A stretch of 64,000 bases of DNA from Cryomorphaceae bacterium (GTDB lineage: Bacteria > Bacteroidota > Bacteroidia > Flavobacteriales_D > Parvicellaceae), in the NCBI GenBank assembly GCA_905182525.1, contig CAJJBV010000002.1, positions 310,001-374,000 of the forward strand, written 5' to 3'. Shown here piece after piece: positions 200 through 46,321 of the stretch. Under the pieces are notes generated by a model, which worked only from the letters and a program-made list of their open reading frames with translations, did not search any database and was not told the DNA's origin. Numbering within the stretch: position 1 is the stretch's first letter; every line of letters starts with the position of its first letter. A program made the position numbers and the translations under genes.

Positions 200-1410
200 A
201 TGAAAAAACTTTTAATTATATCAATTATATCAATCTCGTTTAATTCATTTTCTCAATCAAAATTTGAGACGAATAAAAAAGATAGTGAATATAAGTTTAA
301 AGTTTTGAAAGACTTAGAGGCAACTGATGTTCAAGATCAAGGAAGAACTAGTACTTGCTGGAGCTTTTCATCTTTATCATTCTTTGAGTCAGAAATAATT
401 AGAATTAAAAAAGAGAGGCACAATCTTTCCGAAATGTTTATAGTTAGAAATGCTTATTTGGGAAAGGCAGAAAATTATCTCAGAATGTACGGAACTTTCA
501 CATTTGGGCCTGGTGGAGCCTTTCATGATATACCATGGGTTATAAAAAGATACGGGATTGTTCCAGAAGAAGTTTACGGTGGACTAAATTACGGAGCATC
601 TGCACATAAGCATTCTGAAATGGAAGCAGTTGTAGAATCTGCTGTAAAAGCCTTAGCAAAGAAACCACAAAATGGAAAATTAACTCCAGTTTGGAAAAAT
701 GGGATAGAAGGTATATTGGATGCATATTTAGGCGATATGCCAAGTAATATAGAAGATTATAATTTTACATATAAAGGTAAAAGTATACTCCTAAAACTTT
801 TTCAGAATCTTTAGGTCTAAATATGGAAGACTATATCTCTTTAACTTCTTTTACCCATCATCCTTTCTACAGTAATTTTGTGCTAGAGGTTCAGGATAAC
901 TGGGCGTTACAATCAAGCTATAACTTACCACTTGATGAATTTATGGAAGTTATGGAAAGTGCCTTGATGCAAGGCTATACTTTTGCATGGGGAGCAGATG
1001 TTTCAGAAAAAGGATTTGGATACAGAGACGCTCTGGCAATTTTACCTGAAGATGAATCGACGATAAAAAAATCTGGTAAAGACAGTAAAAGATATAATGA
1101 AGCAGGAGCAGAAAGAATTAGTAATGCTTTTTATACACCAGTTAAAGAAAAAAAAATATCTCAAAAAGATCGGCAAATTGCTTTTGACAATCAAGAAACA
1201 ACAGATGATCATGGAATGCATGTTACTGGTTTAGTTGAGGATCAAAATGGCACAAAATACTTTATTGTCAAAAATTCTTGGGGAGAGAGTAATGAAAAAG
1301 ATGGATACTTTTTTGCTTCATTTCCCTACGTAAGATATAAAACATTAAATATTCAGGTTCATAAAGATGTATTGTCAAAAGATTTAAAAAAGAAATTAGG
1401 AATTAAGTAG
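200..1410 (+). CDS. Secreted C1-family cysteine peptidase (bleomycin hydrolase/PepC-like), frameshifted
   Basis: This is a papain-fold aminopeptidase of the C1B type, about 403 residues once repaired, exported by an N-terminal signal peptide (about residues 1-19, ending F-S-Q). The nucleophile Cys53 lies in TSTCWSF; the catalytic His is in DDHGMHVTG and the Asn in VKNSWGES. The gene is in two frames: 200-814 ends ...FTYKGK and then reads nonsense, while the frame from 784 on reads [17 protein letters not shown].... One missing base in the AAAA run at 779-782 explains it, and an added A gives GKKYTPK. I take this as a sequencing error, although a true pseudogene cannot be excluded. The downstream yidD overlaps the stop by one base. 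Confidence 0.85.
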
Positions 1411-5968: not shown

Positions 5969-6077
5969 ATGTTTAATTAACATTTTTAATTTAAAGAGCT
6001 AATTTGTTAAAGATTCGTTAATTATTGTTTAATTTGTGCATATTATTTTAGATAATAAAAGACCAAAGAATAAGATT

Positions 6078-9000
6078 ATGGCTAAAAAATTATTTTTATT
6101 AACGATTTCTTTTTTTGTATTCCATTTTATTAGTTATGCCCAGCCTCAGGGTGGAAGTGTAAAAGGCAAGGTTTTTGACGAGACTAATGATGGATTTCCT
6201 TTTGTTAATGTAGCTCTTTTTCAAAACGGAAATATTAGAGGAGGAGCAACTACAGATTTTGATGGTGTTTTTAAAATAAGTAATGTTTCTGCGGGTACTT
6301 ACACCTTAGAAATAAAATTTGTTGGTTATCAAACTTACAGGTTAGAAGGTTTAATTATAAAAGGAGGAAAATTACTGCCTCTTTCTCCAATTTATTTAAA
6401 AGAAGCTACAGAGCTTTTAAATGAAGTGGAAATCGTGAGTTATAAAGTCCCATTAATTGACAAAGATGGTGGAGCCTCTGGGGGAACTGTTACAAGAGAA
6501 GATTTAGCCAGAATGCCTGGTAGATCAGCAGCCTCTATTGCTAGTACTGTTGGTGGTGTTCAGTCTGATGCAAATGGTAATATTACTTCTGTCAGGGGTT
6601 CTAGAGATGATGCGACTTACTATTACATTGATGGGATCAAAGTTAGAGGATCAACAAATCTTCCTAAATCTGCAATCGAAGAAGTTAGCGTTATGACAGG
6701 TGGTGTTCCCGCTAATTTTGGTGATGCTACTGGTGGGATTATTTCTATTACAACAAGAGGAGCTTCAAGAGTTTATTTTGGAGGAATAGAAGCTGTAACG
6801 TCTGGAATAGGAATTAATGAAAATGTTTACGGATTAGATAACAATGGATTTAACCTTTTAGAAGGCACTTTTTCTGGTCCTTTACTAATGAGAAAAGATA
6901 GCAACGGAAAGAAAACAGATCCTATTCTTGGATTTTTTGTTTCTGGAAACTTCAATCACGTTCTTGATCCCAGACCTTTAGCTGGAGATCAATATAGACT
7001 TAAACCATCAATGAGAGATTCTTTAATTGATCCTTCTAAATTGGGTCCCTTAAGACCAACTGGCTTGGGATTTGGTGCATATTATAATACTGACTTTTTA
7101 TCTCCAGATGCTTTTGAAAAAATTAATTATCGTCAAAATGTAGCAAGAACAAGAGCTTCTTTAGCTGGGAAAATTGATGTGAATGCAGGACCTAATATGA
7201 ACATCTCTTTTGGTGCTTCTGGTTCATACTCTGATAGAAATGGTGCTTCATGGGAAAGTTCGTTGATGAATTATAATAATTTAGCTAACTACAGAGACTT
7301 AGACTGGAGGGCATATGGTAAATTCACCCAAAGGTTCCAAAACATTTCCCAAGATCAAAATTCTCAAAAAGGTGTTAAAAATGCATACTACACTATCATG
7401 GTAGATTATTCTAAAAATAATGCTTTGGTAGAGGATTCTCAACATGGTGACAATTATTTTAACTATGGTCATATAGGTAAGTTTGATATTTACAAATCTA
7501 AATCCTATGATTTTTCAGATTTTGATGGTAATGGAGTATTAGATCAAGTTCAAAATGGTGTTAATGATGATTCAATTCAATTCACTCCATCCAACTCAAA
7601 TTCCGATATGGCTGCCATTACTAATCAATATTTCTCACTTTATGATGAAGTTGCTGATAATTATGAAAACATTACTCAACTTTTAGACGGTGGCGCTCTT
7701 TTAAATGGAACCAGACCTACAAATGTATATGGGTTGTGGCAAAATATTGGTTATGGATACAATGGTTCAAGTAAGTCAAATAATTCACAATTCAGAATTA
7801 CAGCAGTTGGTTCTGCAGATATTGGAGATCATGCTATTTCTTTAGGTTTCGAATACGAACAAAGAACAGATAGGTTTTTTTCTGTAGCTCCAATAGGTCT
7901 ATGGACATTAATGAGACAACTTGCTAATTCACATACGGATTATGGTAGAGGAATTGACGAAAGTCAGCCTATTTATAACAACTTTGGTTCATTTACTCAA
8001 GTAAGTTTCGAAACTTTAAACACTGCTCCTGGAGAATATTCTGGCTCGGATGCCCAATCTTTTTTCGATTATAATCTTAGAAATGAATTAGGTAAAAACC
8101 CAAATGGTACGGAGTTTATAAACATTGACGCACTTAATCCTTCAGATTTTAGTTTAACTATGTTTAGTGCAGATGAACTGCTAAACTCTGGTAACAATTA
8201 TGTTACTTATTTTGGATATGATCATACGGGCTCTAAAATTCAAGGTAGGCCAAGTTTTGATGATTTCTTTAATAAAAAAGATGACAAGGGAAATTTCACT
8301 CGTCCTATTGGTGCATTTGAGCCAATTTATATTGCAGGTTATATTATGGATAAATTTGCATTTGATGATTTAATATTTAATGTTGGAGTTAGGATTGATA
8401 GATACGACGCCAATCAACAAGTTTTAAAAGATGATTTTTCACTTTACCCAACGAGAACAGTTGGTGAAGTTAATAATGTCAGTGGTCAAGCAATTTCTCA
8501 TCCTACAAATATTCCTAATACAGCTACTGTTTATATTAACGATATAGAAGATCCAACAACTGTAATGGGATACAGACAAGATAATCAATGGTATACTTCA
8601 GATGGTATAGCTGTTAATGATTTAGAGACAATTACTCCAAGCGGATATGTAGTCCCACAGCCTTACTTGTCTCAGGGAGTTTCTACAAATGATAATGTAA
8701 GTTCTAATGCATTTGAAGATTATAAACCTCAAATCAATATTATGCCTAGAATTGCTTTTTCTTTTCCAATATCTGACGAGGCTCTTTTCTTTGCTCATTA
8801 TGATGTTTTGACTAAAAGACCAACTACAGGAAATAGATTAAATCCAATTGATTATTTTTATCTTCAAACTGGTAATATTGGAACGGTTAATAATCCAAGC
8901 CTTCTACCCGAAAAAACTATAGATTATGAGATTGGTTTCCAACAGGTTCTTAATATTAGATCATCCTTAAAAATCTCCGGATTTTATAGAGAACAAAGAA

Positions 9001-9797
9001 ATCAAGTTGCTCTAGTAAATAAAATAGGCGCTTATCCTCAAACTTATTCTACTTGGGGAAATATTGATTTTGGTACTATTAAAGGTTTAACTGTAGCATA
9101 TGATTTGAGAAGAACAGGAAATATGTCTATGAGAGCATCTTATACTTTGCAGTTTGCCGATGGAACAGGTTCAAACCCTTATGCTGCACAAAATTTAATT
9201 GCATCTGACCAACCAAATTTAAGGACTATTTACCCATACACTTATGATCAAAGACATCAAATTATAGCTGCTATAGATTACAGATATGGATCTGGCTCAA
9301 GTTATAATGGACCAAGAATAGCAGGAATTGAAATTTTTAAAAACACAGGTCTTAATCTTGTATCTAATTTTGCTTCAGGTATGCCTTATTCAAGACAGCA
9401 AAGAATTACAGGTGCAGCATTAATAACTGCTCCAACTCCGATACTTGAAGGTGAACCTTTAGGATCTAGAAAACCTTGGAATTTTAGAGGAGATCTTCAA
9501 ATTGATAGAAATATTACTCTTAAGTTTGGTAAGGGTGAATCAAAAAAGAAAACAGCTAACTTAAATGTTTATCTCTTGATGACAAATGTATTTAATACCT
9601 TAAATATCACTAATGTTTATCGCGCTACAGGAAACGCAGGAGATGATGGTTATTTAAATGCTGCAAGATTTCAAACATCAATTAGCACTCAAAATAACGA
9701 AGAGGTTTTTAGATATTATTACGCTATGAAGGCTAATAACCCATATAACTTTGGAACTCCTAGACAAATAAGACTGGGTGTTAAATTAGATTTTTAA
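6078..9797 (+). CDS. TonB-dependent receptor with N-terminal carboxypeptidase-regulatory-like domain
   Basis: This outer-membrane receptor has 1,239 residues. In order it has a signal peptide (about 1-21, ending SYAQ), a CarboxypepD_reg-like beta-sandwich (about 28-110: GKVFDETNDGFPFVNV..., GTYTLEIKFVGYQ), a plug domain (about 125-235: PGRSAASIASTVGGVQ, YYIDGIKVRG, GGVPANFGDATGGIISI) and a long 22-strand-type barrel ending in a C-terminal strand with terminal Phe (RLGVKLDF). The first codon is taken as ATG 6078; an in-frame GTG at 6036 lacks a signal peptide. It starts the module with two T9SS cargo proteins and a PorV-like protein. The next gene begins 19 bases downstream. Its ligand is unknown and no SusD partner is present. 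Confidence 0.85.
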   Translation: MAKKLFLLTISFFVFHFISYAQPQGGSVKGKVFDETNDGFPFVNVALFQNGNIRGGATTDFDGVFKISNVSAGTYTLEIKFVGYQTYRLEGLIIKGGKLLPLSPIYLKEATELLNEVEIVSYKVPLIDKDGGASGGTVTREDLARMPGRSAASIASTVGGVQSDANGNITSVRGSRDDATYYYIDGIKVRGSTNLPKSAIEEVSVMTGGVPANFGDATGGIISITTRGASRVYFGGIEAVTSGIGINENVYGLDNNGFNLLEGTFSGPLLMRKDSNGKKTDPILGFFVSGNFNHVLDPRPLAGDQYRLKPSMRDSLIDPSKLGPLRPTGLGFGAYYNTDFLSPDAFEKINYRQNVARTRASLAGKIDVNAGPNMNISFGASGSYSDRNGASWESSLMNYNNLANYRDLDWRAYGKFTQRFQNISQDQNSQKGVKNAYYTIMVDYSKNNALVEDSQHGDNYFNYGHIGKFDIYKSKSYDFSDFDGNGVLDQVQNGVNDDSIQFTPSNSNSDMAAITNQYFSLYDEVADNYENITQLLDGGALLNGTRPTNVYGLWQNIGYGYNGSSKSNNSQFRITAVGSADIGDHAISLGFEYEQRTDRFFSVAPIGLWTLMRQLANSHTDYGRGIDESQPIYNNFGSFTQVSFETLNTAPGEYSGSDAQSFFDYNLRNELGKNPNGTEFINIDALNPSDFSLTMFSADELLNSGNNYVTYFGYDHTGSKIQGRPSFDDFFNKKDDKGNFTRPIGAFEPIYIAGYIMDKFAFDDLIFNVGVRIDRYDANQQVLKDDFSLYPTRTVGEVNNVSGQAISHPTNIPNTATVYINDIEDPTTVMGYRQDNQWYTSDGIAVNDLETITPSGYVVPQPYLSQGVSTNDNVSSNAFEDYKPQINIMPRIAFSFPISDEALFFAHYDVLTKRPTTGNRLNPIDYFYLQTGNIGTVNNPSLLPEKTIDYEIGFQQVLNIRSSLKISGFYREQRNQVALVNKIGAYPQTYSTWGNIDFGTIKGLTVAYDLRRTGNMSMRASYTLQFADGTGSNPYAAQNLIASDQPNLRTIYPYTYDQRHQIIAAIDYRYGSGSSYNGPRIAGIEIFKNTGLNLVSNFASGMPYSRQQRITGAALITAPTPILEGEPLGSRKPWNFRGDLQIDRNITLKFGKGESKKKTANLNVYLLMTNVFNTLNITNVYRATGNAGDDGYLNAARFQTSISTQNNEEVFRYYYAMKANNPYNFGTPRQIRLGVKLDF

Positions 9798-9816
9798 TAA
9801 ATTTTATAAAAAAGAT

Positions 9817-12800
9817 ATGAAAAGATATTTTATAGTATTATTTGTTAGTATATTTTTTATTACTAATTCTATTTATGGCTGGAACGACCCTTCCAAATCT
9901 GGAAAAAAACCTAAGCCTAGCTCTTCTTTTATTTTAAAAGCTGCTAATTGCACACCATCTACTGGAAAGAAATTTATAGAATTTAATAATGTTTCAGCCT
10001 TAATTGAAACAGGAGGCTCTATGTGGCAAGATAGATCAAGAACTGACGCTGCTTACGAAGTCCCTAAAGGATCTGGAGAAACAGTAATATTTGCAGGCTC
10101 ACTTTGGATGGGAGGAACCGATCCAAATAACCAATTGAGAATCGCTGCTCTTACTTTTAGAAGTGGTAATGATTTTTGGGCTGGACCTCTTTCGGTTGAC
10201 GGAGGTGGTTCTTTTGATGTTAGCCAAGGCACTTTGGATTGGGGGTTTGCAGATATAACACCCGATGTATGTATGGCTTATGATAATTTTTATATAACTG
10301 AAAGAAAAGATGTTGAGTTATTTAATGCTTGGTATCTATGTTCTAAAGATCCTGATTGTGATGAAACAATAGAGTATCCAAATTACCAAGTTCCAGCTAG
10401 TATTTTACAGTGGCCTGGAAACTTTAATACTGGCTTAGATTTTACTCAATCTTATGATTTTAATCTTGCACCTTTTTATGACAGAAATAGCGATGGAATA
10501 TATAACCCTGCTGATGGAGATTACCCATGGTATGATTTGTTAGGGCAAGTAGACTGCAGAACTAGTCGAAGAGTTACTTTGTATGGTGATTATAATATGT
10601 GGTGGGTTTTTAATGACAAGGGAAATATACATACCGAGACTAGTGGAGACCCAATAGGTATGGAAATAAAAGCACAGGCTTTTGCTTTTGCTACCAATGA
10701 TGAGGTAAACTCAATGACCTTTTATAATTACGAACTTATAAATAGAAGTTATTATACATTAAACAATTCCTACTTTGCAGTGTGGGTAGATTCTGATATT
10801 GGTTGTTCAGAAGATGATTTTGTTGGGTGTGATGTTCAAAGAGGTTTAAGTTATCAATATAATGCAGATGCTGTAGATGATGGTTGTCAGTATGCAATTC
10901 AAGGACCCCCACCTGCGATTGGAGTTGATTTTTTTGAAGGCCCTTACCAAGATAATGACGGATTGGATAACCCGGGCCCATCTGATAGTGTAACAGTTGA
11001 CGCTTCAACTGCTTATAGCTTGGGTGGTATCCCTTATAAAGGGCTAGGAATTGGATATGGAGATGGAATTATAGACAATGAAAGGTTTGGAATGAAAAGA
11101 TTTGTTTATTTTGACAGGACGCTCAACCAGACTATATATGGTGACCCTCAAACTGCAGTAGACTTCTATAATTATATGCTAGGTTTCTGGAGAAATAATA
11201 CTCCTTTTGTTTATGGAGGAACGGGGAATGCTAATGATGCAAACGCAACTTCTATTTTAACAAATTATTGTTTCCCTGGGGATAGCGATCCATTAAATTG
11301 GGGAACAGTTTCTGCTGGTGGAGGCTCAGCAGTTCCTTTTGACAATTGGTCTGAACAATATCCAACTGGTACAGGTGGTGGTAATCCGAACCCTCAAGGT
11401 GACAGAAGGTTTGTACAGTCTGCAGGTCCATTTGTGTTAGAGCCTGGTGCACTGAATAATATTACTACTGGAGTTGTTTATGCAAAAGCACAATCTCCTG
11501 ATCCCTTTCAATCAGTTGAGTTAGTCAGGAAGGCAGATGATAAAGCACAGGCATTATTTGATAATTGTTTTAGGATATTGAATGGTCCTGATTCACCTGA
11601 GTTATCGATACAGGAGTTAGATAAGGAGTTGATATTATATTTGAATAAGACTGATCAGGTTGAGTCATATGAGGAGATAGACCCTAATATTCTTATTTAC
11701 GTTAGCGATGTAGAAGATGCGAAGTATCGTTTCCAGGGTTATCAGGTTTATCAGGTTAAGGATGGCTCTGTAGATCCCTCATTATTAACAGATCCTAATC
11801 AAGCTAGGTTAATAGCACAATGTGATATTAAAGATGGAGTTAGTCAATTGATTAATTTTAATTTTGACGATGATTTATTAGCAGCGATACCAACGTCTAT
11901 GGTTAATGGTTCTGACGATGGTATAAAGCATTCATTTCAGGTTTTAAATGATGCCTTTGCTCAGGGAGATGTTAGGTTGATTAATCATAAGAAGTATTAT
12001 TTCATGGTTTTATCCTATGGATATAATGATTACCAGACCTATGATCCTTCAAATTCTTCGGCTGGAGGTCAGCAACTTCCTTATAAAGCAGGAAGGAAGA
12101 CAGTTACTGGAGGGGCGATTACGTCCTATGTTGGTATACCACATATTCCTAGTTCTGAGTCTGGAGGTACGATACAAATAGCTTCTTATGGTAGCGGTCC
12201 AAAGATTACTAGAGTAGAGGGGAGAGGGAACGGATCAAACCTAGTAGAGTTAACAGCTAAGAGTGAGGAAGATATAGTAAAAAACATATATCCAAAGCGA
12301 GTTACGTATAAAAATGGAAAAGGGCCAGTTAATGTGAAGATTATAGATCCATTGAATGTACAGCAGGGAGATTATAAGTTATGGATAAACAGAGGAGATA
12401 CTCTTGATTTAAAAGATTCATATTGGGTGTTGGAGAGAACGACATCTGACGGTCAGCTTGAGACGGTTGAGTCGTCACAAAGTATAGCCAATGGTAATGA
12501 ACAATTGATACCTCAGTGGGGACTTTCGGTAAATATTGAGTATTACGATTCTTATGATCCAACGATTAGCAAGAATTTTCCAGAGTTGTTATTTTCTAGT
12601 GTGGAGTTTGAAGATTCTTCAAAGCAATGGTTAAGTGGTATTCCAGATGAAGACGGTTCTTCACCTACGAATTGGATAAGATCAGGAACTTCAGAGGAGG
12701 AACAAGATTTTGTAGCTTATGCTAGTAAGTGTGAAGATCCATTTATATACAATGATGAGCTTGGAGCTGATGATAATCAGGTTTATGAGAAAGTAGTTGA

Positions 12801-14193
12801 AGGTGTATGGTCACCATATAGATTAGTAGCAGCAGGAGATTGTAATCACCAGCCTGTAACATCAGGTGGAGATTGGGCTGATAATGCATATGAGCAGCCT
12901 GTAGTAGCACCAAATGTTAATGCTCAAATGTCACTAGCGACAACTAGAGTTCAGTCTGATTTAAAGTATTTATCGTCTATTGATGTAGTAATTACAGCCG
13001 ATAAGAGTAAGTGGACTAGATGTCCTGTTTTAGAGACACAGGATAATCCTTCTTGGTCTTGGGACCAGTCTGGAGCTATAAATCAGTCTATGAGTAATAA
13101 GTATGGCAATGGCACATCAGTTGCAAGGGTGTACAAACAATATCCAAAGTGGAAGCCGTCTGTTGATAAAGAAGGTAATCCGTCTGTGAGTCCAGGGGAT
13201 GTCAATAGTCCTACGGTATCTAGTGATCCAAACGACGCAAATTATATATGTGGCTATGGCATGGGATGGTTCCCTGGGTACGCTATAGATGTAACGACAG
13301 GTGAGAGATTAAATATTGCATTTGGAGAAGATAGTAAGCTAGGTAATCACGGGGGGAATGATATGATATTTAATCCATCAGCTAATAATCCGTCATCAAA
13401 TCCGTTTGGGTTTGGAGATTATATAGGAGGAGGAAAGCATTTTGTGTATGTTTTTAGGAATGCTGCAAAGTATAGCGCTACGGATGATCCAGGAAGTATG
13501 GTAGCTTATGATAATGGGGCTTATTTTATGGAGAAGTTTCAGAAATCTGTTTTCAGGCCAGATATGTTAAAGATATGGAAGTCTTGTTCATGGGTAGGAT
13601 ATCCGATATTAAATGGAGAATATAATAATGCTTATGTTGAAGCAAGTCCAGGAGATCCAAGTTCCTTTATAGCTACAGATGTTAGGATAAAGTTAAGGGT
13701 TGCTAGTCAATATCAGAGTATGAATACGAAGGATGCAGATGGAGATAGCATAAGAGATAATGGTACGGATAAACCATCGATTACTAGTAGTTCTATAAAT
13801 AGTTGGAATCCACTTTATGAGTTTAGTACAAGTGATGTAGCAACAGTGACTAATAATGTTCTAGCATCAAAAGAAGCATGTGAGTTATTAAATGTGGTGC
13901 CTAACCCGTACTATGCGTATTCTAATTATGAGTTTAATAAATTAGATAATGTAGTAAAGATTGTGAATTTACCAGATATATGTACGGTGAATATATATAC
14001 AGTTAATGGCACTTTGGTACGTTCATATAATAAAGATAGTCCGGTTACATCAATAGATTGGAATTTAAAGAATAAGGTTGGTATACCAATAGCAAGCGGA
14101 GTATACTTGATACATATTAATGCGCCAGGAGTGTGTGAAAAAGTATTGAAATGGTTTGGAGTGATAAGACCTCCAGATTTAGATCAGTTCTAA
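9817..14193 (+). CDS. Giant T9SS surface protein, copy 1 (mosaic N-terminus, shared C-terminal cassette)
   Basis: 1,458 residues with a signal peptide (MKRYFIVLFVSIFFITNSIYG). The mature N-terminus (WNDPSKSGKKPKPSSSF) and residues to about 569 resemble the paralogue at 15264-19643 only in patches. From about residue 570 to the end the two proteins are almost identical. The last 100 residues (from VVPNPYYAY at about 1360, through GTLVRSY and PIASGVYLIHI) form a type A T9SS sorting domain, so export across the outer membrane and surface attachment are expected. Other recognisable features are Cys-containing segments (AANCTPSTG, YLCSKDPDCDE) and many aromatic and Asp/Gly-rich loops. The function is unknown. 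It lies between the TonB receptor and a PorV-like gene. Confidence 0.85.
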   Translation: MKRYFIVLFVSIFFITNSIYGWNDPSKSGKKPKPSSSFILKAANCTPSTGKKFIEFNNVSALIETGGSMWQDRSRTDAAYEVPKGSGETVIFAGSLWMGGTDPNNQLRIAALTFRSGNDFWAGPLSVDGGGSFDVSQGTLDWGFADITPDVCMAYDNFYITERKDVELFNAWYLCSKDPDCDETIEYPNYQVPASILQWPGNFNTGLDFTQSYDFNLAPFYDRNSDGIYNPADGDYPWYDLLGQVDCRTSRRVTLYGDYNMWWVFNDKGNIHTETSGDPIGMEIKAQAFAFATNDEVNSMTFYNYELINRSYYTLNNSYFAVWVDSDIGCSEDDFVGCDVQRGLSYQYNADAVDDGCQYAIQGPPPAIGVDFFEGPYQDNDGLDNPGPSDSVTVDASTAYSLGGIPYKGLGIGYGDGIIDNERFGMKRFVYFDRTLNQTIYGDPQTAVDFYNYMLGFWRNNTPFVYGGTGNANDANATSILTNYCFPGDSDPLNWGTVSAGGGSAVPFDNWSEQYPTGTGGGNPNPQGDRRFVQSAGPFVLEPGALNNITTGVVYAKAQSPDPFQSVELVRKADDKAQALFDNCFRILNGPDSPELSIQELDKELILYLNKTDQVESYEEIDPNILIYVSDVEDAKYRFQGYQVYQVKDGSVDPSLLTDPNQARLIAQCDIKDGVSQLINFNFDDDLLAAIPTSMVNGSDDGIKHSFQVLNDAFAQGDVRLINHKKYYFMVLSYGYNDYQTYDPSNSSAGGQQLPYKAGRKTVTGGAITSYVGIPHIPSSESGGTIQIASYGSGPKITRVEGRGNGSNLVELTAKSEEDIVKNIYPKRVTYKNGKGPVNVKIIDPLNVQQGDYKLWINRGDTLDLKDSYWVLERTTSDGQLETVESSQSIANGNEQLIPQWGLSVNIEYYDSYDPTISKNFPELLFSSVEFEDSSKQWLSGIPDEDGSSPTNWIRSGTSEEEQDFVAYASKCEDPFIYNDELGADDNQVYEKVVEGVWSPYRLVAAGDCNHQPVTSGGDWADNAYEQPVVAPNVNAQMSLATTRVQSDLKYLSSIDVVITADKSKWTRCPVLETQDNPSWSWDQSGAINQSMSNKYGNGTSVARVYKQYPKWKPSVDKEGNPSVSPGDVNSPTVSSDPNDANYICGYGMGWFPGYAIDVTTGERLNIAFGEDSKLGNHGGNDMIFNPSANNPSSNPFGFGDYIGGGKHFVYVFRNAAKYSATDDPGSMVAYDNGAYFMEKFQKSVFRPDMLKIWKSCSWVGYPILNGEYNNAYVEASPGDPSSFIATDVRIKLRVASQYQSMNTKDADGDSIRDNGTDKPSITSSSINSWNPLYEFSTSDVATVTNNVLASKEACELLNVVPNPYYAYSNYEFNKLDNVVKIVNLPDICTVNIYTVNGTLVRSYNKDSPVTSIDWNLKNKVGIPIASGVYLIHINAPGVCEKVLKWFGVIRPPDLDQF
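9887..9956 (+). repeat. N-terminal identical island, copy 1
   Basis: A 70-base stretch identical to 15361-15430. It encodes the start of the mature protein (DPSKSGKKPKPSSSF...ANCTP) in both giant cargo genes. The sequence on either side diverges, including the whole signal peptide. The offset to copy 2 is 5,474, not the 5,450 of the C-terminal cassette, so indels separate the two blocks. Confidence 0.9.
11264..11295 (+). repeat. Short identical island in variable region, copy 1
   Basis: A 32-base run identical to 16735-16766, encoding the Y-C-F-P-G-D-S-D-P-L segment. It lies inside otherwise divergent sequence of the two cargo genes (offset 5,471). Confidence 0.85.
11398..11466 (+). repeat. 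Identical island just before the cassette, copy 1
   Basis: A 69-base run identical to 16848-16916, encoding GDRRFVQSAGPFVLEPGAL and so on. It already has the 5,450 offset and the codon habits (CAG, GAG, GTG, CTG) of the large cassette that begins 57 bases later. The intervening stretch differs between copies. Confidence 0.9.
11523..14184 (+). repeat. 2,662-bp near-identical cassette, copy 1
   Basis: Direct repeat of 16973-19634 with a constant offset of 5,450 and no indel. Comparing by eye I find nine mismatches: 11607, 11916, 12681, 12715, 13437, 13717, 13718, 13827 and 14121. Only 12715 changes a residue (Ala to Thr). The repeat begins abruptly in the coding region at about residue 570 and ends within the last few codons, just before the stop. 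Glu, Gln and Ile are mostly GAG, CAG and ATA here, unlike the N-terminal part of the gene. Confidence 0.95.
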
Positions 14194-14215
14194 TAAATTT
14201 TTAAATAAATAGATT

Positions 14216-15274
14216 ATGATATTTGATAAAATAAAGTTTTGTGTATTGTTATTATTTTCATTCAATTTTGCTTTAGCTGGAAATGAAGATAGAGCTGGTT
14301 CAGCTGGGGCAACGGAATTATTAATTAACCCTTGGTCTAGTAGCTCAGCTTGGGGCTCCGCAGGTATATCATCTGTAAATGGTTTAGAATCTATCTTTTT
14401 AAATGTTGCTGGTTTAGCATATATCGATAAAACTGAAGTAAAATTTTCCAGGACTAATTGGTTAGGAGGATCTGATGTTGGTATAGGCTTAAATGCAGCA
14501 GGTTTAGCCCAAAGGGTAGGTGAGTCTGGTGTTATAGGAATTTCTTTTACTAGTTTGAATTATGGGGATATTCAAATAACTACTACAGAACTTCCAGAAG
14601 GTGGTATTGGAACATTTAGCCCTAGTTCAAATAATTTTAATTTAGCATTTGCCAAGAAGTTTTCACAATCTATTAGTGGAGGACTAAATTTAAAAGTAGT
14701 ATCGCAGGCAATTGCAAATGTCAGAGCTCAAGGCATAGCTTTTGATGCTGGCATAAGATATGTTACAGGAGATCAGGAACATATTAAATTTGCTATTAGC
14801 CTTAAAAATGTTGGTCCCCCATTATCTTATTCGGGTGATGGTCTTTCTATAGATATGCTTAACCCATCAACTAGCATTTCTATTGGTATGCAACAACGAG
14901 TTAGCAGTTTTGAATTACCCTCGCAGCTTAATATTGGCGCATCATATGATTTTAACTTTAATGAAAGTCAAAAATTAATTGTTGCGGGTTCCTTTTCTGC
15001 AAATTCCTTTTCTAAAGATCAAATTAGAACAGGATTAGAGTATAGAATTTTAACATCTCAAATCTCTTTTTCTTTAAGAGCTGGTATTGTTTATGAAGAG
15101 GCATTATTCAATTCAGAAGAGGTAACAACTGCTCTTTCTGGACCAAGTGGTGGTTTTTCTTTTAATTTTCCTTTTGGAGAAAGTGGTTCCGAAATTGGAA
15201 TAGATTATGCCTATAGACAATCTATTTTTGGAGCAATCCATAGTGTAGGTGCTAGAATAAATATTGGTGAATAA
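14216..15274 (+). CDS. PorV/PorQ-family outer-membrane protein
   Basis: 352 residues with a signal peptide (about 1-21, ending FALA). The mature start (GSAGATELLINPWSSSSAWGSAG...SIFLNVAGLA) and the strand-rich body (GVIGISFTSLNYG, SGGLNLKVVS, FDAGIRYVTG, LKNVGPPLSY) match the PorV/PorQ group of FadL-like beta-barrels. PorV is the T9SS protein that receives cargo from the SprA translocon and carries it to the attachment complex. Position between two cargo genes suggests a dedicated shuttle for them, which is an inference. The gene starts 23 bases after copy 1 and its end overlaps the start of copy 2. Confidence 0.8.
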   Translation: MIFDKIKFCVLLLFSFNFALAGNEDRAGSAGATELLINPWSSSSAWGSAGISSVNGLESIFLNVAGLAYIDKTEVKFSRTNWLGGSDVGIGLNAAGLAQRVGESGVIGISFTSLNYGDIQITTTELPEGGIGTFSPSSNNFNLAFAKKFSQSISGGLNLKVVSQAIANVRAQGIAFDAGIRYVTGDQEHIKFAISLKNVGPPLSYSGDGLSIDMLNPSTSISIGMQQRVSSFELPSQLNIGASYDFNFNESQKLIVAGSFSANSFSKDQIRTGLEYRILTSQISFSLRAGIVYEEALFNSEEVTTALSGPSGGFSFNFPFGESGSEIGIDYAYRQSIFGAIHSVGARINIGE

Positions 15275-18200
15275 ACCATTAAATTCTAATTCGATTATTT
15301 CTAAAATCATTTTTTTTGGTTTATTTAGCTTAGTTAATTTTCATATTTATGCCTGGAATGACCCTTCCAAATCTGGAAAAAAACCTAAGCCTAGCTCTTC
15401 TTTTATTTTAAAAGCTGCTAATTGCACACCTTCCACTGGCAGAAAATTCCTAGAATATAATAATGTTTCAGCCTTAATTGAAACAGGAGGTTCTATGTGG
15501 CTAGACAGATCAAGGGGAAAAAATGCCTATGAAGTTCCTAAAGGATCTGGAAATACTTTAATTTATATTGGTGCACTTTGGATGGGTGGTATGGATGTTA
15601 ATAATCAGCTAAAAATAGCTGCTTTAAGATATAGAAGCGGTAATGATTTTTGGACAGGGCCTCTATCAAACAATCCTGGCTCTGGAGATGTTTCAACTGG
15701 AAAATTAGACTATGGACCAGCAGAAATTGATGCTAACGATTGTATTAAATGGGATCAGTTTTTTATTACTACAAGAAGTGAAGTTGAGAAATTTAACGCC
15801 TGGTATCTATGTTCTAAAGATCCAGATTGTGATGAAACAATAGAGTATCCAAATTATAAAATTCCAGAAAGTATTTTGGACTGGGGTAATGCTACTCATG
15901 GAAACTTATTAAAAAATCAAGACTTCTATTTGGCTCCTTACTATGAAAGACCTGGGGGCAATATTGGTTATGATCCTTTAAATGATGGAGACTATCCCTG
16001 GTATGATTTGTCAGGTCAAGTAGATTGCAGAACTAGTCGAAGAGTTACTTTGTATGGGGATTATAATATGTGGTGGATTTTTAATGATAAGGGAAATATA
16101 CACACAGAAACTGGCGGAGATCCAATTGGTATGGAAATTAGAGCCCAAGCATTTGCTTTTGCCACAAATGATGAAGTAAATTCTATGACTTTCTATAATT
16201 ATGAATTAATTAACCGATCAACACAAACCTTAACTAATACTTTTTTTGGCGTTTATTTAGACAGTGATATAGGTTGTTCATTTGACGATTATGTTGGTTG
16301 CGATATTCAGCGTGGTCTTGGTTACTGTTATAATGGAAATTCTATTGATGCTATTGGTTGTGGGTCATGGACTTCTCCAATTGGTGAAAATCCACCTGCG
16401 ATTGGAGTTGATTTTTTTGAAGGCCCCTACCAAGATAATGATGGTCTAGATAATCCCTTAACTTCAAATATTCCTCTTGCATTAAGTCAAGGAGGAATTC
16501 CTTATAAAGGGCTAGGAATTGGATATAGTGATGGAATCATAGACAATGAAAGGTTTGGAATGAGGAGATTTGTTTATTATGATGGACAACTTCCTCAAAA
16601 TTCTTTTGGTGATCCCCAAACTGCAATTCAATATTATAATTATATGAGAGGGTTTTGGAGAGATGGTACTAGATTTGTCTATGGAGCTTCTGGAAATATA
16701 TCAAGCACAGGATCTTTACCTAATGTTTCTGCTGATTATTGTTTCCCTGGGGATAGCGATCCATTACATTGGGGAACTTTAGGAGTGGTTACAAATTTTG
16801 AATGGAGTGAGCAGTTTCCAGCACCTGGAGTTTCTTCAAATGTCGTTGGTGACAGAAGGTTTGTACAGTCTGCAGGTCCATTTGTGTTAGAGCCTGGTGC
16901 ACTGAATAATATTACTTTTGGAGTTGTTTATGGAAGAGCTTTTGATGGAGATCCTTTTAGCTCTGTTCTTCAAGTCAGGAAGGCAGATGATAAAGCACAG
17001 GCATTATTTGATAATTGTTTTAGGATATTGAATGGTCCTGATTCACCTGAGTTATCAATACAGGAGTTAGATAAGGAGTTGATATTATATTTGAATAAGA
17101 CTGATCAGGTTGAGTCATATGAGGAGATAGACCCTAATATTCTTATTTACGTTAGCGATGTAGAAGATGCGAAGTATCGTTTCCAGGGTTATCAGGTTTA
17201 TCAGGTTAAGGATGGCTCTGTAGATCCCTCATTATTAACAGATCCTAATCAAGCTAGGTTAATAGCACAATGTGATATTAAAGATGGAGTTAGTCAATTG
17301 ATTAATTTTAATTTTGACGATGATTTATTAGCAGCGATACCAACGTCTATGGTTAATGGTTCTGATGATGGTATAAAGCATTCATTTCAGGTTTTAAATG
17401 ATGCCTTTGCTCAGGGAGATGTTAGGTTGATTAATCATAAGAAGTATTATTTCATGGTTTTATCCTATGGATATAATGATTACCAGACCTATGATCCTTC
17501 AAATTCTTCGGCTGGAGGTCAGCAACTTCCTTATAAAGCAGGAAGGAAGACAGTTACTGGAGGGGCGATTACGTCCTATGTTGGTATACCACATATTCCT
17601 AGTTCTGAGTCTGGAGGTACGATACAAATAGCTTCTTATGGTAGCGGTCCAAAGATTACTAGAGTAGAGGGGAGAGGGAACGGATCAAACCTAGTAGAGT
17701 TAACAGCTAAGAGTGAGGAAGATATAGTAAAAAACATATATCCAAAGCGAGTTACGTATAAAAATGGAAAAGGGCCAGTTAATGTGAAGATTATAGATCC
17801 ATTGAATGTACAGCAGGGAGATTATAAGTTATGGATAAACAGAGGAGATACTCTTGATTTAAAAGATTCATATTGGGTGTTGGAGAGAACGACATCTGAC
17901 GGTCAGCTTGAGACGGTTGAGTCGTCACAAAGTATAGCCAATGGTAATGAACAATTGATACCTCAGTGGGGACTTTCGGTAAATATTGAGTATTACGATT
18001 CTTATGATCCAACGATTAGCAAGAATTTTCCAGAGTTGTTATTTTCTAGTGTGGAGTTTGAAGATTCTTCAAAGCAATGGTTAAGTGGTATTCCAGATGA
18101 AGACGGTTCTTCACCTACGAATTGGATAAGGTCAGGAACTTCAGAGGAGGAACAAGATTTTGTAACTTATGCTAGTAAGTGTGAAGATCCATTTATATAC

Positions 18201-19643
18201 AATGATGAGCTTGGAGCTGATGATAATCAGGTTTATGAGAAAGTAGTTGAAGGTGTATGGTCACCATATAGATTAGTAGCAGCAGGAGATTGTAATCACC
18301 AGCCTGTAACATCAGGTGGAGATTGGGCTGATAATGCATATGAGCAGCCTGTAGTAGCACCAAATGTTAATGCTCAAATGTCACTAGCGACAACTAGAGT
18401 TCAGTCTGATTTAAAGTATTTATCGTCTATTGATGTAGTAATTACAGCCGATAAGAGTAAGTGGACTAGATGTCCTGTTTTAGAGACACAGGATAATCCT
18501 TCTTGGTCTTGGGACCAGTCTGGAGCTATAAATCAGTCTATGAGTAATAAGTATGGCAATGGCACATCAGTTGCAAGGGTGTACAAACAATATCCAAAGT
18601 GGAAGCCGTCTGTTGATAAAGAAGGTAATCCGTCTGTGAGTCCAGGGGATGTCAATAGTCCTACGGTATCTAGTGATCCAAACGACGCAAATTATATATG
18701 TGGCTATGGCATGGGATGGTTCCCTGGGTACGCTATAGATGTAACGACAGGTGAGAGATTAAATATTGCATTTGGAGAAGATAGTAAGCTAGGTAATCAC
18801 GGGGGGAATGATATGATATTTAATCCATCAGCTAATAATCCGTCATCAAATCCGTTTGGGTTTGGAGATTATATAGGAGGAGGAAAACATTTTGTGTATG
18901 TTTTTAGGAATGCTGCAAAGTATAGCGCTACGGATGATCCAGGAAGTATGGTAGCTTATGATAATGGGGCTTATTTTATGGAGAAGTTTCAGAAATCTGT
19001 TTTCAGGCCAGATATGTTAAAGATATGGAAGTCTTGTTCATGGGTAGGATATCCGATATTAAATGGAGAATATAATAATGCTTATGTTGAAGCAAGTCCA
19101 GGAGATCCAAGTTCCTTTATAGCTACAGATGTTAGGATAAAGTTAAGGGTTGCTAGTCAATATCAGTCTATGAATACGAAGGATGCAGATGGAGATAGCA
19201 TAAGAGATAATGGTACGGATAAACCATCGATTACTAGTAGTTCTATAAATAGTTGGAATCCACTTTATGAGTTTAGCACAAGTGATGTAGCAACAGTGAC
19301 TAATAATGTTCTAGCATCAAAAGAAGCATGTGAGTTATTAAATGTGGTGCCTAACCCGTACTATGCGTATTCTAATTATGAGTTTAATAAATTAGATAAT
19401 GTAGTAAAGATTGTGAATTTACCAGATATATGTACGGTGAATATATATACAGTTAATGGCACTTTGGTACGTTCATATAATAAAGATAGTCCGGTTACAT
19501 CAATAGATTGGAATTTAAAGAATAAGGTTGGTATACCAATAGCAAGCGGAGTATACTTGATACATATTAACGCGCCAGGAGTGTGTGAAAAAGTATTGAA
19601 ATGGTTTGGAGTGATAAGACCTCCAGATTTAGATAGTTTTTAG
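15264..19643 (+). CDS. Giant T9SS surface protein, copy 2 (paralogue of 9817-14193)
   Basis: About 1,459 residues, same architecture as copy 1: signal peptide (to about residue 30, ending HIYA), the WNDPSKSG start, a divergent region to about residue 569, then the shared part with the type A sorting domain. There is no upstream ATG before the signal peptide. The start must be TTG 15264 or GTG 15267, both inside the end of the PorV-like gene, so translation is likely coupled. The N-terminal part differs from copy 1 by many substitutions and several indels (net 24 bases), for example the region after AIGVDFFEGPYQDNDGLDN. The tail ends LDSF instead of LDQF. Function unknown. Confidence 0.85.
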   Translation: MVNKPLNSNSIISKIIFFGLFSLVNFHIYAWNDPSKSGKKPKPSSSFILKAANCTPSTGRKFLEYNNVSALIETGGSMWLDRSRGKNAYEVPKGSGNTLIYIGALWMGGMDVNNQLKIAALRYRSGNDFWTGPLSNNPGSGDVSTGKLDYGPAEIDANDCIKWDQFFITTRSEVEKFNAWYLCSKDPDCDETIEYPNYKIPESILDWGNATHGNLLKNQDFYLAPYYERPGGNIGYDPLNDGDYPWYDLSGQVDCRTSRRVTLYGDYNMWWIFNDKGNIHTETGGDPIGMEIRAQAFAFATNDEVNSMTFYNYELINRSTQTLTNTFFGVYLDSDIGCSFDDYVGCDIQRGLGYCYNGNSIDAIGCGSWTSPIGENPPAIGVDFFEGPYQDNDGLDNPLTSNIPLALSQGGIPYKGLGIGYSDGIIDNERFGMRRFVYYDGQLPQNSFGDPQTAIQYYNYMRGFWRDGTRFVYGASGNISSTGSLPNVSADYCFPGDSDPLHWGTLGVVTNFEWSEQFPAPGVSSNVVGDRRFVQSAGPFVLEPGALNNITFGVVYGRAFDGDPFSSVLQVRKADDKAQALFDNCFRILNGPDSPELSIQELDKELILYLNKTDQVESYEEIDPNILIYVSDVEDAKYRFQGYQVYQVKDGSVDPSLLTDPNQARLIAQCDIKDGVSQLINFNFDDDLLAAIPTSMVNGSDDGIKHSFQVLNDAFAQGDVRLINHKKYYFMVLSYGYNDYQTYDPSNSSAGGQQLPYKAGRKTVTGGAITSYVGIPHIPSSESGGTIQIASYGSGPKITRVEGRGNGSNLVELTAKSEEDIVKNIYPKRVTYKNGKGPVNVKIIDPLNVQQGDYKLWINRGDTLDLKDSYWVLERTTSDGQLETVESSQSIANGNEQLIPQWGLSVNIEYYDSYDPTISKNFPELLFSSVEFEDSSKQWLSGIPDEDGSSPTNWIRSGTSEEEQDFVTYASKCEDPFIYNDELGADDNQVYEKVVEGVWSPYRLVAAGDCNHQPVTSGGDWADNAYEQPVVAPNVNAQMSLATTRVQSDLKYLSSIDVVITADKSKWTRCPVLETQDNPSWSWDQSGAINQSMSNKYGNGTSVARVYKQYPKWKPSVDKEGNPSVSPGDVNSPTVSSDPNDANYICGYGMGWFPGYAIDVTTGERLNIAFGEDSKLGNHGGNDMIFNPSANNPSSNPFGFGDYIGGGKHFVYVFRNAAKYSATDDPGSMVAYDNGAYFMEKFQKSVFRPDMLKIWKSCSWVGYPILNGEYNNAYVEASPGDPSSFIATDVRIKLRVASQYQSMNTKDADGDSIRDNGTDKPSITSSSINSWNPLYEFSTSDVATVTNNVLASKEACELLNVVPNPYYAYSNYEFNKLDNVVKIVNLPDICTVNIYTVNGTLVRSYNKDSPVTSIDWNLKNKVGIPIASGVYLIHINAPGVCEKVLKWFGVIRPPDLDSF
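15361..15430 (+). repeat. N-terminal identical island, copy 2
   Basis: Identical to 9887-9956. It encodes the first residues of the mature protein after the signal peptide. Confidence 0.9.
16735..16766 (+). repeat. Short identical island in variable region, copy 2
   Basis: Identical to 11264-11295 within otherwise divergent coding sequence. Confidence 0.85.
16848..16916 (+). repeat. Identical island just before the cassette, copy 2
   Basis: Identical to 11398-11466 and shares the offset of the large cassette. Confidence 0.9.
16973..19634 (+). repeat. 2,662-bp near-identical cassette, copy 2
   Basis: Partner of 11523-14184. The identity stops at the third codon before the stop, so the homogenised block is confined to coding sequence. 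The two copies are in direct orientation and bracket the PorV-like gene and the N-terminal part of cargo copy 2. Confidence 0.95.
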
Positions 19644-19680
19644 ATTTATTTTTTATATTTTTACTAGATAAACTTTAGTT

Positions 19681-19702
19681 TCTACACATTGTAGATTTTT
19701 TT
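19681..19702 (+). terminator. Possible weak intrinsic terminator after cargo copy 2
   Basis: A 5-bp stem (TCTAC / GTAGA) with a 5-base loop is followed by seven T. The stem is short and AT-rich, so this is only a candidate. It lies in the 75-base gap between the cargo gene and greA, where a transcript end would be expected. Confidence 0.3.
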
Positions 19703-19718
19703 CAAACAAATATTTTTT

Positions 19719-20192
19719 ATGTCAGAAATCAGTTACTATACTCAAGAAGGATTAGATAATTTAAAGCAAGAGGTTAAGAAACTTGAAACTATTGAAAGGC
19801 CTAAGATTTCACAACAAATTGGTGAGGCAAGGGATAAAGGTGATTTATCCGAAAATGCTGAGTACGATGCTGCTAAGGAAGCTCAAGGTATGCTTGAAGC
19901 AAGAATTTCTAAACTCAAAAATACGTTGGCTAACGCAAGGTTAATTGATGACAGTGAAATTGACGATAGTAAAGTATTTATACTTTCAACGGTAAAAATT
20001 AAGAATATCAAGAACTCCATGCAAATGAATTATACTTTAGTTGCTGAAAATGAAGCTGATATAAGAGCCGGTAAAATATCAGTTGATTCACCTATTGGCA
20101 AGGGCTTGTTAGGTAAAGAGGTTGGTGAAATTGCCGATATTAATACTCCAGCAGGCGTTATGAAATTTGAAATTATTTCTATTAAAAGATAA
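19719..20192 (+). CDS. greA: Transcription elongation factor GreA
   Basis: 157 residues, the normal length. The N-terminal coiled-coil hairpin (about 1-75) carries the acidic tip in ARDKGDLSENAEYDAA. The C-terminal FKBP-like domain ends with SPIGKGLLGKEVGEIADINTPAG. GreA enters the secondary channel of RNA polymerase and stimulates cleavage of backtracked transcripts. The last base of its stop is the first base of the next start (TAATG), so it forms an operon with the HIT gene. Confidence 0.97.
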   Translation: MSEISYYTQEGLDNLKQEVKKLETIERPKISQQIGEARDKGDLSENAEYDAAKEAQGMLEARISKLKNTLANARLIDDSEIDDSKVFILSTVKIKNIKNSMQMNYTLVAENEADIRAGKISVDSPIGKGLLGKEVGEIADINTPAGVMKFEIISIKR

Positions 20193-20587
20193 TGCAGGAT
20201 TCTATTTTTACCAAAATCATTAATAAGGAATTACCATGTTATAAAATTGCTGAGAACAATAATTTCATAGCATTTTTAGATATAGTACCATTAAAAAAAG
20301 GACACACACTGGTTGTGCCTAAAATACAGGTAGATTATATATATGACTTGCCAGATAAAGTTCTTTCAGATTTATTTATTTTCTCAAAAAAAATAGCAAA
20401 AAAAATAGAAAGTGTAATTGACTGTAAAAGAGTAGGAGTAGCTGTAATAGGGCTAGAAGTCCCCCATGCTCATGTACATTTAGTTCCCATTAATGAAATT
20501 TCAGATATGAACTTCCAAAACCAAAGAATAGAATTGAATAAGGAGGATTTTCAAAATATAAGAGATAAGATTATAGAATCTAGCTAG
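20192..20587 (+). CDS. HIT-family (histidine triad) nucleotide-binding protein
   Basis: 131 residues. The triad PHAHVHL places His92, His94 and His96 in the family pattern, and the N-terminal part (FTKIINKELPCYKI...FLDIVPLKKGHTLVVPK) is typical of HinT-type purine nucleotide phosphoramidase-like hydrolases. It is translationally coupled to greA, a common Bacteroidota pairing. Its 3' end overlaps convergent ruvC by 8 bases. The physiological substrate is not known. Confidence 0.92.
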   Translation: MQDSIFTKIINKELPCYKIAENNNFIAFLDIVPLKKGHTLVVPKIQVDYIYDLPDKVLSDLFIFSKKIAKKIESVIDCKRVGVAVIGLEVPHAHVHLVPINEISDMNFQNQRIELNKEDFQNIRDKIIESS

Positions 20588-45219: not shown

Positions 45220-46321
45220 TTATTGTAAAATTATCTTCCTTGTTTCCCTCCCTTTTTCACTACTTAACTGCGCTATGTAAATTCCTTTATCCAAGTTGGA
45301 AATATTAATCTTTTGATTTGAAAAACTATTGTACTCTAGATCAAGAATCAATAATCCTTTAATATCAAATAATTTTAGAGTACTCTTTTGATGGGTTGAA
45401 ACGGTAAAATATTCGCTCGCAGGATTAGGATAGATAGTGCTGTTAATATTACGATTTGAGTATTAAAGAATCAACGGTTAAATAATCTGTAAGTTCTCCT
45501 AAGCAGGATAAATTAGTATCTGACAAGCAAATCAAATCATAATTAACAGATTTGTTGGAATCAACATTTACAACAATTATATTTTCTCCATTTTGATCAC
45601 CCATTCCGCTCGCAATTAATTTAATGTTGTTAAATCGGTCGAAAGTAACATCTGTTGACCATGTTGCTCCAAGGTCGCCAGCAAACATATAAACATCATT
45701 TGGGATTGCGTCAAATATTGGGATTACAGTTGACCAAAAGTTCACTGGATTTATTCTGCCTACAGCAGAGTTCCAGTTTATGTAATTAAATTGATTGGTG
45801 TTTTCTCTCCATAGGATTTGGTGAAAAAACACGAAGATATTTTCTTTGGATGAATAGTTGTCACTAACAGAATTTTGTAAAAATAGTAATTGAGAGCCTG
45901 TTATACTCCATCCATCTATGTTTGGGTCTAATACGATGAATAAATCATTATTATAGATAAAATCGAAGTAAGTTATTCCATATCTAGACTCAAACAATGG
46001 ACGATTCTCCATATCGTGATTGCCAACTGCAAAATATATTGGCAAAGCTAAGGTGTCAATTTCCGCATCAATTTCATCCCAATCTTGGGCATTGGGAAAA
46101 GGAGAAACAATATCTCCTGTCAAAACACCAAATTCAATTTCAGATCTACTTTGGATGTATGGGAACTTTTGCTTGAATGGTGGATGAAATCCAACATTAT
46201 TAATACCTGGCTGACCATATGTATGTCCTGCTACAAAGAATGAATATAATACAGAATTATTTTGAGCAAATACATATAGATTACTAATTAGTAATATTAC
46301 AATTAAAGATTTTAGTTTCAT
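45220..46321 (-). CDS. Secreted calcineurin-like phosphoesterase with T9SS sorting domain, frameshifted
   Basis: About 366 residues after repair. It has a signal peptide (about 1-19, ending VFAQ) and then a metallophosphoesterase-like core: FFVAGHTYGQ, GVLTGDIV, FAVGNHDMEN, FFHQILW and MFAGDLG. The frame ends at 45449 (VDSLILKS), but the next 230 bases encode STIYPNPASEYFTV...LFDIKGLLI...LDKGIYIAQL...RKIILQ, a type A T9SS sorting domain. Removing one base from TTT at 45455-45457 joins the two (ILNRNINSTIYPNP). The protein is probably exported to the surface. Its substrate is unknown. Confidence 0.8.

What the first reader, a model, noticed from the sequence alone, without database searches (positions are those of the whole stretch)
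9817..19643. Twin giant T9SS surface proteins with a homogenised 2.66-kb C-terminal cassette
The genes at 9817-14193 and 15264-19643 share 11523-14184 / 16973-19634 at a constant offset of 5,450 with no indel and only nine mismatches by eye. One mismatch changes an amino acid (Ala to Thr at 12715/18165), and the Ser codon AGT/TCT differs at two bases yet is synonymous. Upstream of residue about 570 the same proteins diverge with indels. Such a sharp change from high identity to divergence within one gene pair implies recent gene conversion or cassette exchange. It fits a surface-variation system in which a constant exported and anchored scaffold displays a variable distal domain.
Basis: partly seen in the sequence, partly recalled or inferred. 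Interest (0 to 1): 0.88.

Follow-up and report, generated by a model that had tools for sequence, protein, structure and literature searches.

The report
Twin surface-protein genes with copied tails
In a marine Bacteroidota bacterium two neighbouring genes for secreted surface proteins keep overwriting each other's last two thirds while their first thirds stay distinct; related species do the same, so this is repeated gene conversion between old duplicates and probably not a surface-variation switch.

Summary
Relatives show recurrent segmental gene conversion: N-halves group by copy across species (A with A, B with B), C-halves group by genome, and AU tests reject the swaps. In three species of the genus the left edge falls within about one codon and the right edge at the last two codons. 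In eight broken draft genomes of the genus, contigs end at these edges. The N-halves carry short converted tracts too: A and B differ about 3-fold more than orthologues in protein, yet less at synonymous sites, so selection seems to guard A- and B-specific residues. The 'variable display domain' reading is not supported: N-halves are more conserved between species than the tail, only two versions exist, and the locus is a conserved module (TonB-like, A, PorV-like, [B], greA, HIT). Segmental concerted evolution is known from H. pylori babA/babB and homA/homB, so this is a new member of a known kind. A lead: GC at 4-fold sites is raised in the homogenised part only in converting genomes, hinting at GC-biased conversion.

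The parts
9817..14193 (+). Protein A, 1458 aa, signal peptide by eye, T9SS type A-like tail
   Evidence: ORF; tail matches PorZ and Por_Secre_tail models; genome-wide scan 24.8 bits against a cut-off of 23
15264..19643 (+). Protein B, 1459 aa, paralogue of A with TTG start
   Evidence: ORF; 88% aa identity to A over the whole length
11523..14184 (+). Homogenised C-terminal segment, copy in A
   Evidence: C-half tree groups own A with own B
16973..19634 (+). Homogenised C-terminal segment, copy in B
   Evidence: C-half tree groups own A with own B
9817..11522 (+). A-type N-terminal part, mosaic of diverged and converted tracts
   Evidence: groups with A orthologues of seven genomes
15264..16972 (+). 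B-type N-terminal part
   Evidence: groups with G010 copy 2 and G003 B
9886..9956 (+). 71-nt identical tract in the N part (partner 15360-15430), putative short conversion tract
10555..10586 (+). 32-nt identical tract (partner 16026-16057), putative conversion tract
10909..10943 (+). 35-nt identical tract (partner 16392-16426), putative conversion tract
11264..11295 (+). 32-nt identical tract (partner 16735-16766), putative conversion tract
11398..11466 (+). 69-nt identical tract (partner 16848-16916) just left of the main edge
13945..14127 (+). T9SS sorting-domain match in A (in B: 19395-19577)
   Evidence: TIGR04183 residues 1377-1437; Foldseek of the modelled end: PorZ 5m11 E=8.3e-5, then PorU and cargo CTDs
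14216..15274 (+). PorV/PorQ-family protein encoded between A and B
   Evidence: NF033709 E=4e-38, 131.8 bits against a cut-off of 90
6036..9797 (+). TonB-dependent-receptor-like protein (CarboxypepD_reg and Plug)
   Evidence: Pfam; synteny in relatives
19719..20587 (+). greA and HIT genes, conserved right flank

Best explanation
A and B are old tandem duplicates of a T9SS-exported surface protein, separated by a PorV-like gene. Recurrent, probably RecA-dependent and non-crossover gene conversion between the direct repeats keeps the C-terminal ~890 residues nearly identical within each genome, while the N-terminal ~570 residues have specialised. Conversion also enters the N part in short tracts, but changes of A- or B-specific residues are removed by selection, so the main left edge lies where specialised sequence (or heterology too high for strand exchange) begins, and the right edge where homology ends. 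Shown: the concerted pattern, the shared edges, the mosaic, the opposite N and C trees. Inferred: the enzyme, the non-crossover mode, selection as the guard of the N part, and the biochemical role (two versions of one exported surface component that share a PorV-like partner and a TonB-like receptor).
For: Own A/B: 4-fold sites 35% different in N, 0.3% in C. N tree: own A with A orthologues, own B with G010_2 and G003_B; C tree: own A with own B, G010_1 with G010_2; AU tests reject own A+B in N (p=6e-4) and own A+G010_1 in C (p=4e-5). C part between species pS about 0.6, within genomes 0.011 (own), 0.13 (G010), 0.08 (G016). Same edges in own, G010 and G003. Contig ends at these edges in eight draft genomes of the genus, with an exact 119-bp overlap in G003. 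N part: paralogues pN 0.20, pS 0.51-0.57; orthologues pN 0.05-0.08, pS 0.63-0.76. Copies 870 kb apart in G012 are not homogenised.
Against: Tandem pairs in G022 and G037 are not homogenised, so proximity is not sufficient. No population or long-read data: ongoing exchange is not seen directly. Shared left edge in three species could also mean a domain joint present since the duplication. In G006 only one C copy is assembled. Roles of A and B are not tested.
Confidence: 0.92

Rival explanations
1. Programmed surface variation: a constant exported and anchored scaffold displays exchangeable N-terminal domains by cassette shuffling.
For: Sharp constant/variable edge in exported proteins; T9SS-type tail.
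Against: N part is more conserved between species than the C part; only two N-types, the same in several species; no donor or silent cassettes in the genome; conserved synteny over the order.
Confidence: 0.04
2. A single recent event (one duplication of the C-half or one cassette exchange) specific to this genome.
For: A near-identical block with a sharp edge is what one event would give.
Against: The same state, with species-specific sequence, exists in G010, G003 and G016, while N parts and the last codons keep copy identity across species.
Confidence: 0.02
3. Assembly artefact: the two C parts were collapsed or polished to one consensus.
For: The assembly shows signs of residual indels (split genes at 200-1410 and at PorU).
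Against: Nine differences remain; G010 and G016 carry both copies on one contig with other differences; short-read drafts break exactly at the edges, as at a true repeat.
Confidence: 0.02
4. Strong purifying selection on the C part alone, without conversion.
For: The C part is nearly identical in protein.
Against: Synonymous sites are also identical within genomes (1/348 at 4-fold sites) yet near saturation between species (pS about 0.6).
Confidence: 0.01

Closest known systems
Helicobacter pylori babA/babB and homA/homB segmental concerted evolution (Pride and Blaser 2002, as described in PMC2795765)
   Same: Outer-membrane or surface paralogues whose 3' segment groups by strain while the 5' segment groups by gene, explained by intragenomic gene conversion.
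   Different: There the comparison is within one species and a middle segment is allele-variable; here the pattern recurs between species with pS about 0.6, edges coincide between species, and the non-converted part is the more conserved one. Proteins are unrelated.
Long-lasting concerted evolution in prokaryotes (26 genes, PMC6053082)
   Same: Recurrent conversion of paralogues in several lineages, shown by opposite trees and synonymous sites.
   Different: That survey treats full-length genes, mostly of stable complexes, and leaves partial cases open; this is partial and over a shorter time span (one genus and sister genera).
T9SS type A cargo and PorV shuttle proteins
   Same: Tail similar to the CTDs of PorZ, PorU and cargo proteins; PorV/PorQ-family neighbour; genome with SprA, PorU and about 80 CTDs.
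   Different: No Pfam family covers the 1,458-residue proteins; a conserved KWFGVxRPPDLDxF end follows the CTD match; function unstudied.
GC-biased gene conversion in bacteria (PMC4450053)
   Same: Recombining DNA has higher GC, independent of codon selection.
   Different: Here the contrast lies inside one reading frame and concerns paralogue conversion; evidence is suggestive only.

Membership tests
Concerted evolution by gene conversion | Paralogues in one genome closer to each other than to orthologues | tested here: met
   C part: trees and AU tests, pS within versus between genomes
Concerted evolution by gene conversion | Similarity at synonymous as well as amino-acid sites | tested here: met
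   1/348 4-fold differences
Concerted evolution by gene conversion | Recurrence in independent lineages | tested here: met
   own, G010, G003 and the sister-genus G016
Concerted evolution by gene conversion | Exchange without loss of the flanks, seen directly in a population | not testable with these tools
   no reads or strain collections
Segmental concerted evolution of the bab/hom type | One segment homogenised, another diverged in the same gene pair | tested here: met
Cassette-based antigenic variation | Silent donor cassettes or more than two variable versions in the genome | tested here: not met
   only two copies
Cassette-based antigenic variation | Variable part evolves faster than the constant part | tested here: not met
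   N part slower than C part between species
T9SS type A cargo | C-terminal sorting domain over the curated cut-off | tested here: inconclusive
   whole-protein 20.2 bits, under 23; six-frame scan 24.8 bits, over 23; fold match to PorZ CTD
T9SS type A cargo | T9SS machinery in the genome | tested here: met
   SprA, PorV family, PorU (in broken frames)
T9SS type A cargo | Export and surface anchoring | not testable with these tools
   needs proteomics
GC-biased gene conversion | Higher GC at neutral sites of converting DNA, not explained by expression or position | tested here: inconclusive
   C minus N GC4 +0.056 to +0.237 in four converting genomes versus -0.038 to +0.037 in 16 others, U test p=0.0002, but three of the four share a genus; along-gene correlation in G010 and G016 (0 of 23 shifts), weak in own (3 of 23), absent in G043

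The most novel reading that the evidence does not exclude
The locus is a natural experiment for GC-biased gene conversion in bacteria: within one reading frame, the part that is repeatedly converted gains GC at 4-fold sites, while the protected part and the single-copy homologues do not.
Probability: 0.35. Interest if true: 0.68.

Novelty: new member of a known kind. Interest (0 to 1): 0.5.

Why it matters
It is a clean case of partial-gene concerted evolution that recurs in several species, a class that a genome-wide survey left open (PMC6053082). Because converted and protected DNA share one reading frame, expression is held constant, so the locus offers a direct test of selection against conversion and of GC-biased conversion in bacteria, a debated idea (PMC4450053). 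It also warns that short-read genomes of this group systematically break or lose these genes at the repeat.

Tried and rejected
AlphaFold models of the N and C parts failed (mean pLDDT 27 and 31.5) because the permitted alignments were shallow; only the sorting-domain region of the C model was usable. PDB sequence search found only the PorZ CTD. Pfam and NCBIfam gave no family for the N part. No paper on a TonB/PorV/T9SS module of this kind was found, and none under the name MED-G20. In the first dN/dS table one row (G010_2, N part) was out of frame; it was recomputed from aligned codons and the earlier row is not used. G040 and G043 look partly homogenised but are too weak to count as further cases. 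Considered and rejected: a lineage-specific duplication of the C-half, assembly collapse, purifying selection alone, cassette-based surface variation.

Full report
What is there. The window lies in a 2.19-Mb, six-contig assembly. Genes in order: TonB-dependent-receptor-like (6036-9797), protein A (9817-14193), PorV/PorQ-family protein (14216-15274), protein B (15264-19643), greA, HIT. At 4-fold sites the N parts differ at 52/150 and the C parts at 1/348.

The N part is a mosaic. A codon alignment shows identical tracts of up to 71 nt between stretches of roughly 50-70% identity. Synonymous differences are clustered (0 of 20,000 permutations for the sum of squared runs). By contrast AFATNDEVNSMTFYNYELIN is identical in protein but only 80% identical in DNA, which is what purifying selection without conversion looks like.

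Relatives. The order TonB, A, PorV, [B], greA, HIT is widely conserved; several genomes have no B, such as G025, G018 and G011. In G010 both copies are on one contig: N parts are closest to the matching copy here, C parts to each other. AU tests reject the swaps.

Sister genus and drafts. In G016 (another genus of the family) the homogenised region starts further in, near residue 750, and contigs of two other genomes of that genus stop near residues 801-821. In G003 two contig ends share exactly 119 bp at the left edge and two at the right edge, in contigs named k119, the mark of an assembly graph broken at a repeat. G002, G004, G005, G006, G007, G008 and G009 also have contigs ending within residues 540-705 or 1410-1424. 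This answers the collapse worry: the repeat is real in many assemblies, and its sequence is species-specific.

Edges. In own, G003 and G010 identity starts within about a codon of V570-R571 and ends just before the last two codons, where A and B keep their own residue and their own stop codon, TAA in A and TAG in B. The right edge is the end of homology. The left edge is where A- and B-specific sequence begins. In G010 an island at residues ~627-660 keeps separate A and B versions; the window's B carries the A version there, while the A copies of G003 and G006 carry the other. This suggests conversion in both directions (inference).

Selection. In the N part, paralogues in one genome of the genus have pN about 0.20 (orthologues 0.05-0.08) but pS 0.51-0.57 (orthologues 0.63-0.76) (the intervals overlap for some pairs). 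Conversion thus seems to lower synonymous divergence in the N part too, while amino-acid differences persist; the simplest reading is selection for two specialised N parts. The N part is the better conserved one between species, and its core is found outside the class. This is the opposite of a variable display domain.

Controls. Two copies 870 kb apart in G012 are not homogenised, and their C parts have diverged more than their N parts. Tandem pairs in G022 and G037 are not homogenised either, so tandem position alone is not enough.

GC. GC at 4-fold sites is higher in the C than in the N part in four converting genomes (+0.056, +0.065, +0.123, +0.237) and not in 16 others (-0.038 to +0.037). 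Along the gene it follows paralogue identity in G010 and G016, weakly in the window's genome, and not in G043. Expression level is the same for both halves of one gene. Three of the four genomes share a genus, so this is a lead, not a result.

Function. A and B carry a T9SS type A-like tail: TIGR04183 is near its cut-off, and the modelled end matches PorZ, PorU and cargo CTDs. The genome has SprA, PorU and four PorV-family genes and about 82 tails over the cut-off. It is inferred that A and B are exported surface proteins served by the PorV-like protein encoded between them. The rest of both proteins has no known fold here.

Placing it. The closest precedent is H. pylori babA/babB and homA/homB, where the 3' segment evolves in concert and the 5' segment diverges (PMC2795765). 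Outer-membrane genes are a usual target of short-term concerted evolution, and partial cases were left open by a survey (PMC6053082). So this is a new member of a known kind, with two less usual traits: edges shared between species, and a possible GC bias.

Noticed in passing
window 200-1410: A papain-like (C1) peptidase gene is split into two ORFs (200-814 and 823-1410), each with part of the domain: a real frameshift or a residual assembly indel.
   Followed up: partly
window 45223-45435 (-), next to ORF 45449-46321 (-): A T9SS sorting domain (Pfam PF18962, E=7e-17) lies in a short frame just downstream of a 290-aa ORF, another likely broken or mis-assembled gene.
   Followed up: partly
G000:C4:20770-24087 (L103): The PorU-like sortase gene is spread over several frames with a stop inside, again pointing to indels in this assembly; a second PorU-like/PorV-family pair sits at C2:195164-201281.
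   Followed up: no
window 6036-20587 and relatives: TonB-like receptor, large T9SS protein, PorV-family protein, greA and HIT form a conserved block across many genera of the order: an unstudied envelope module as far as the searched library shows.
   Followed up: partly
L038 and L039 (G012): Two family copies 870 kb apart are not homogenised, and their C parts are more diverged than their N parts, a useful control for conversion.
   Followed up: yes
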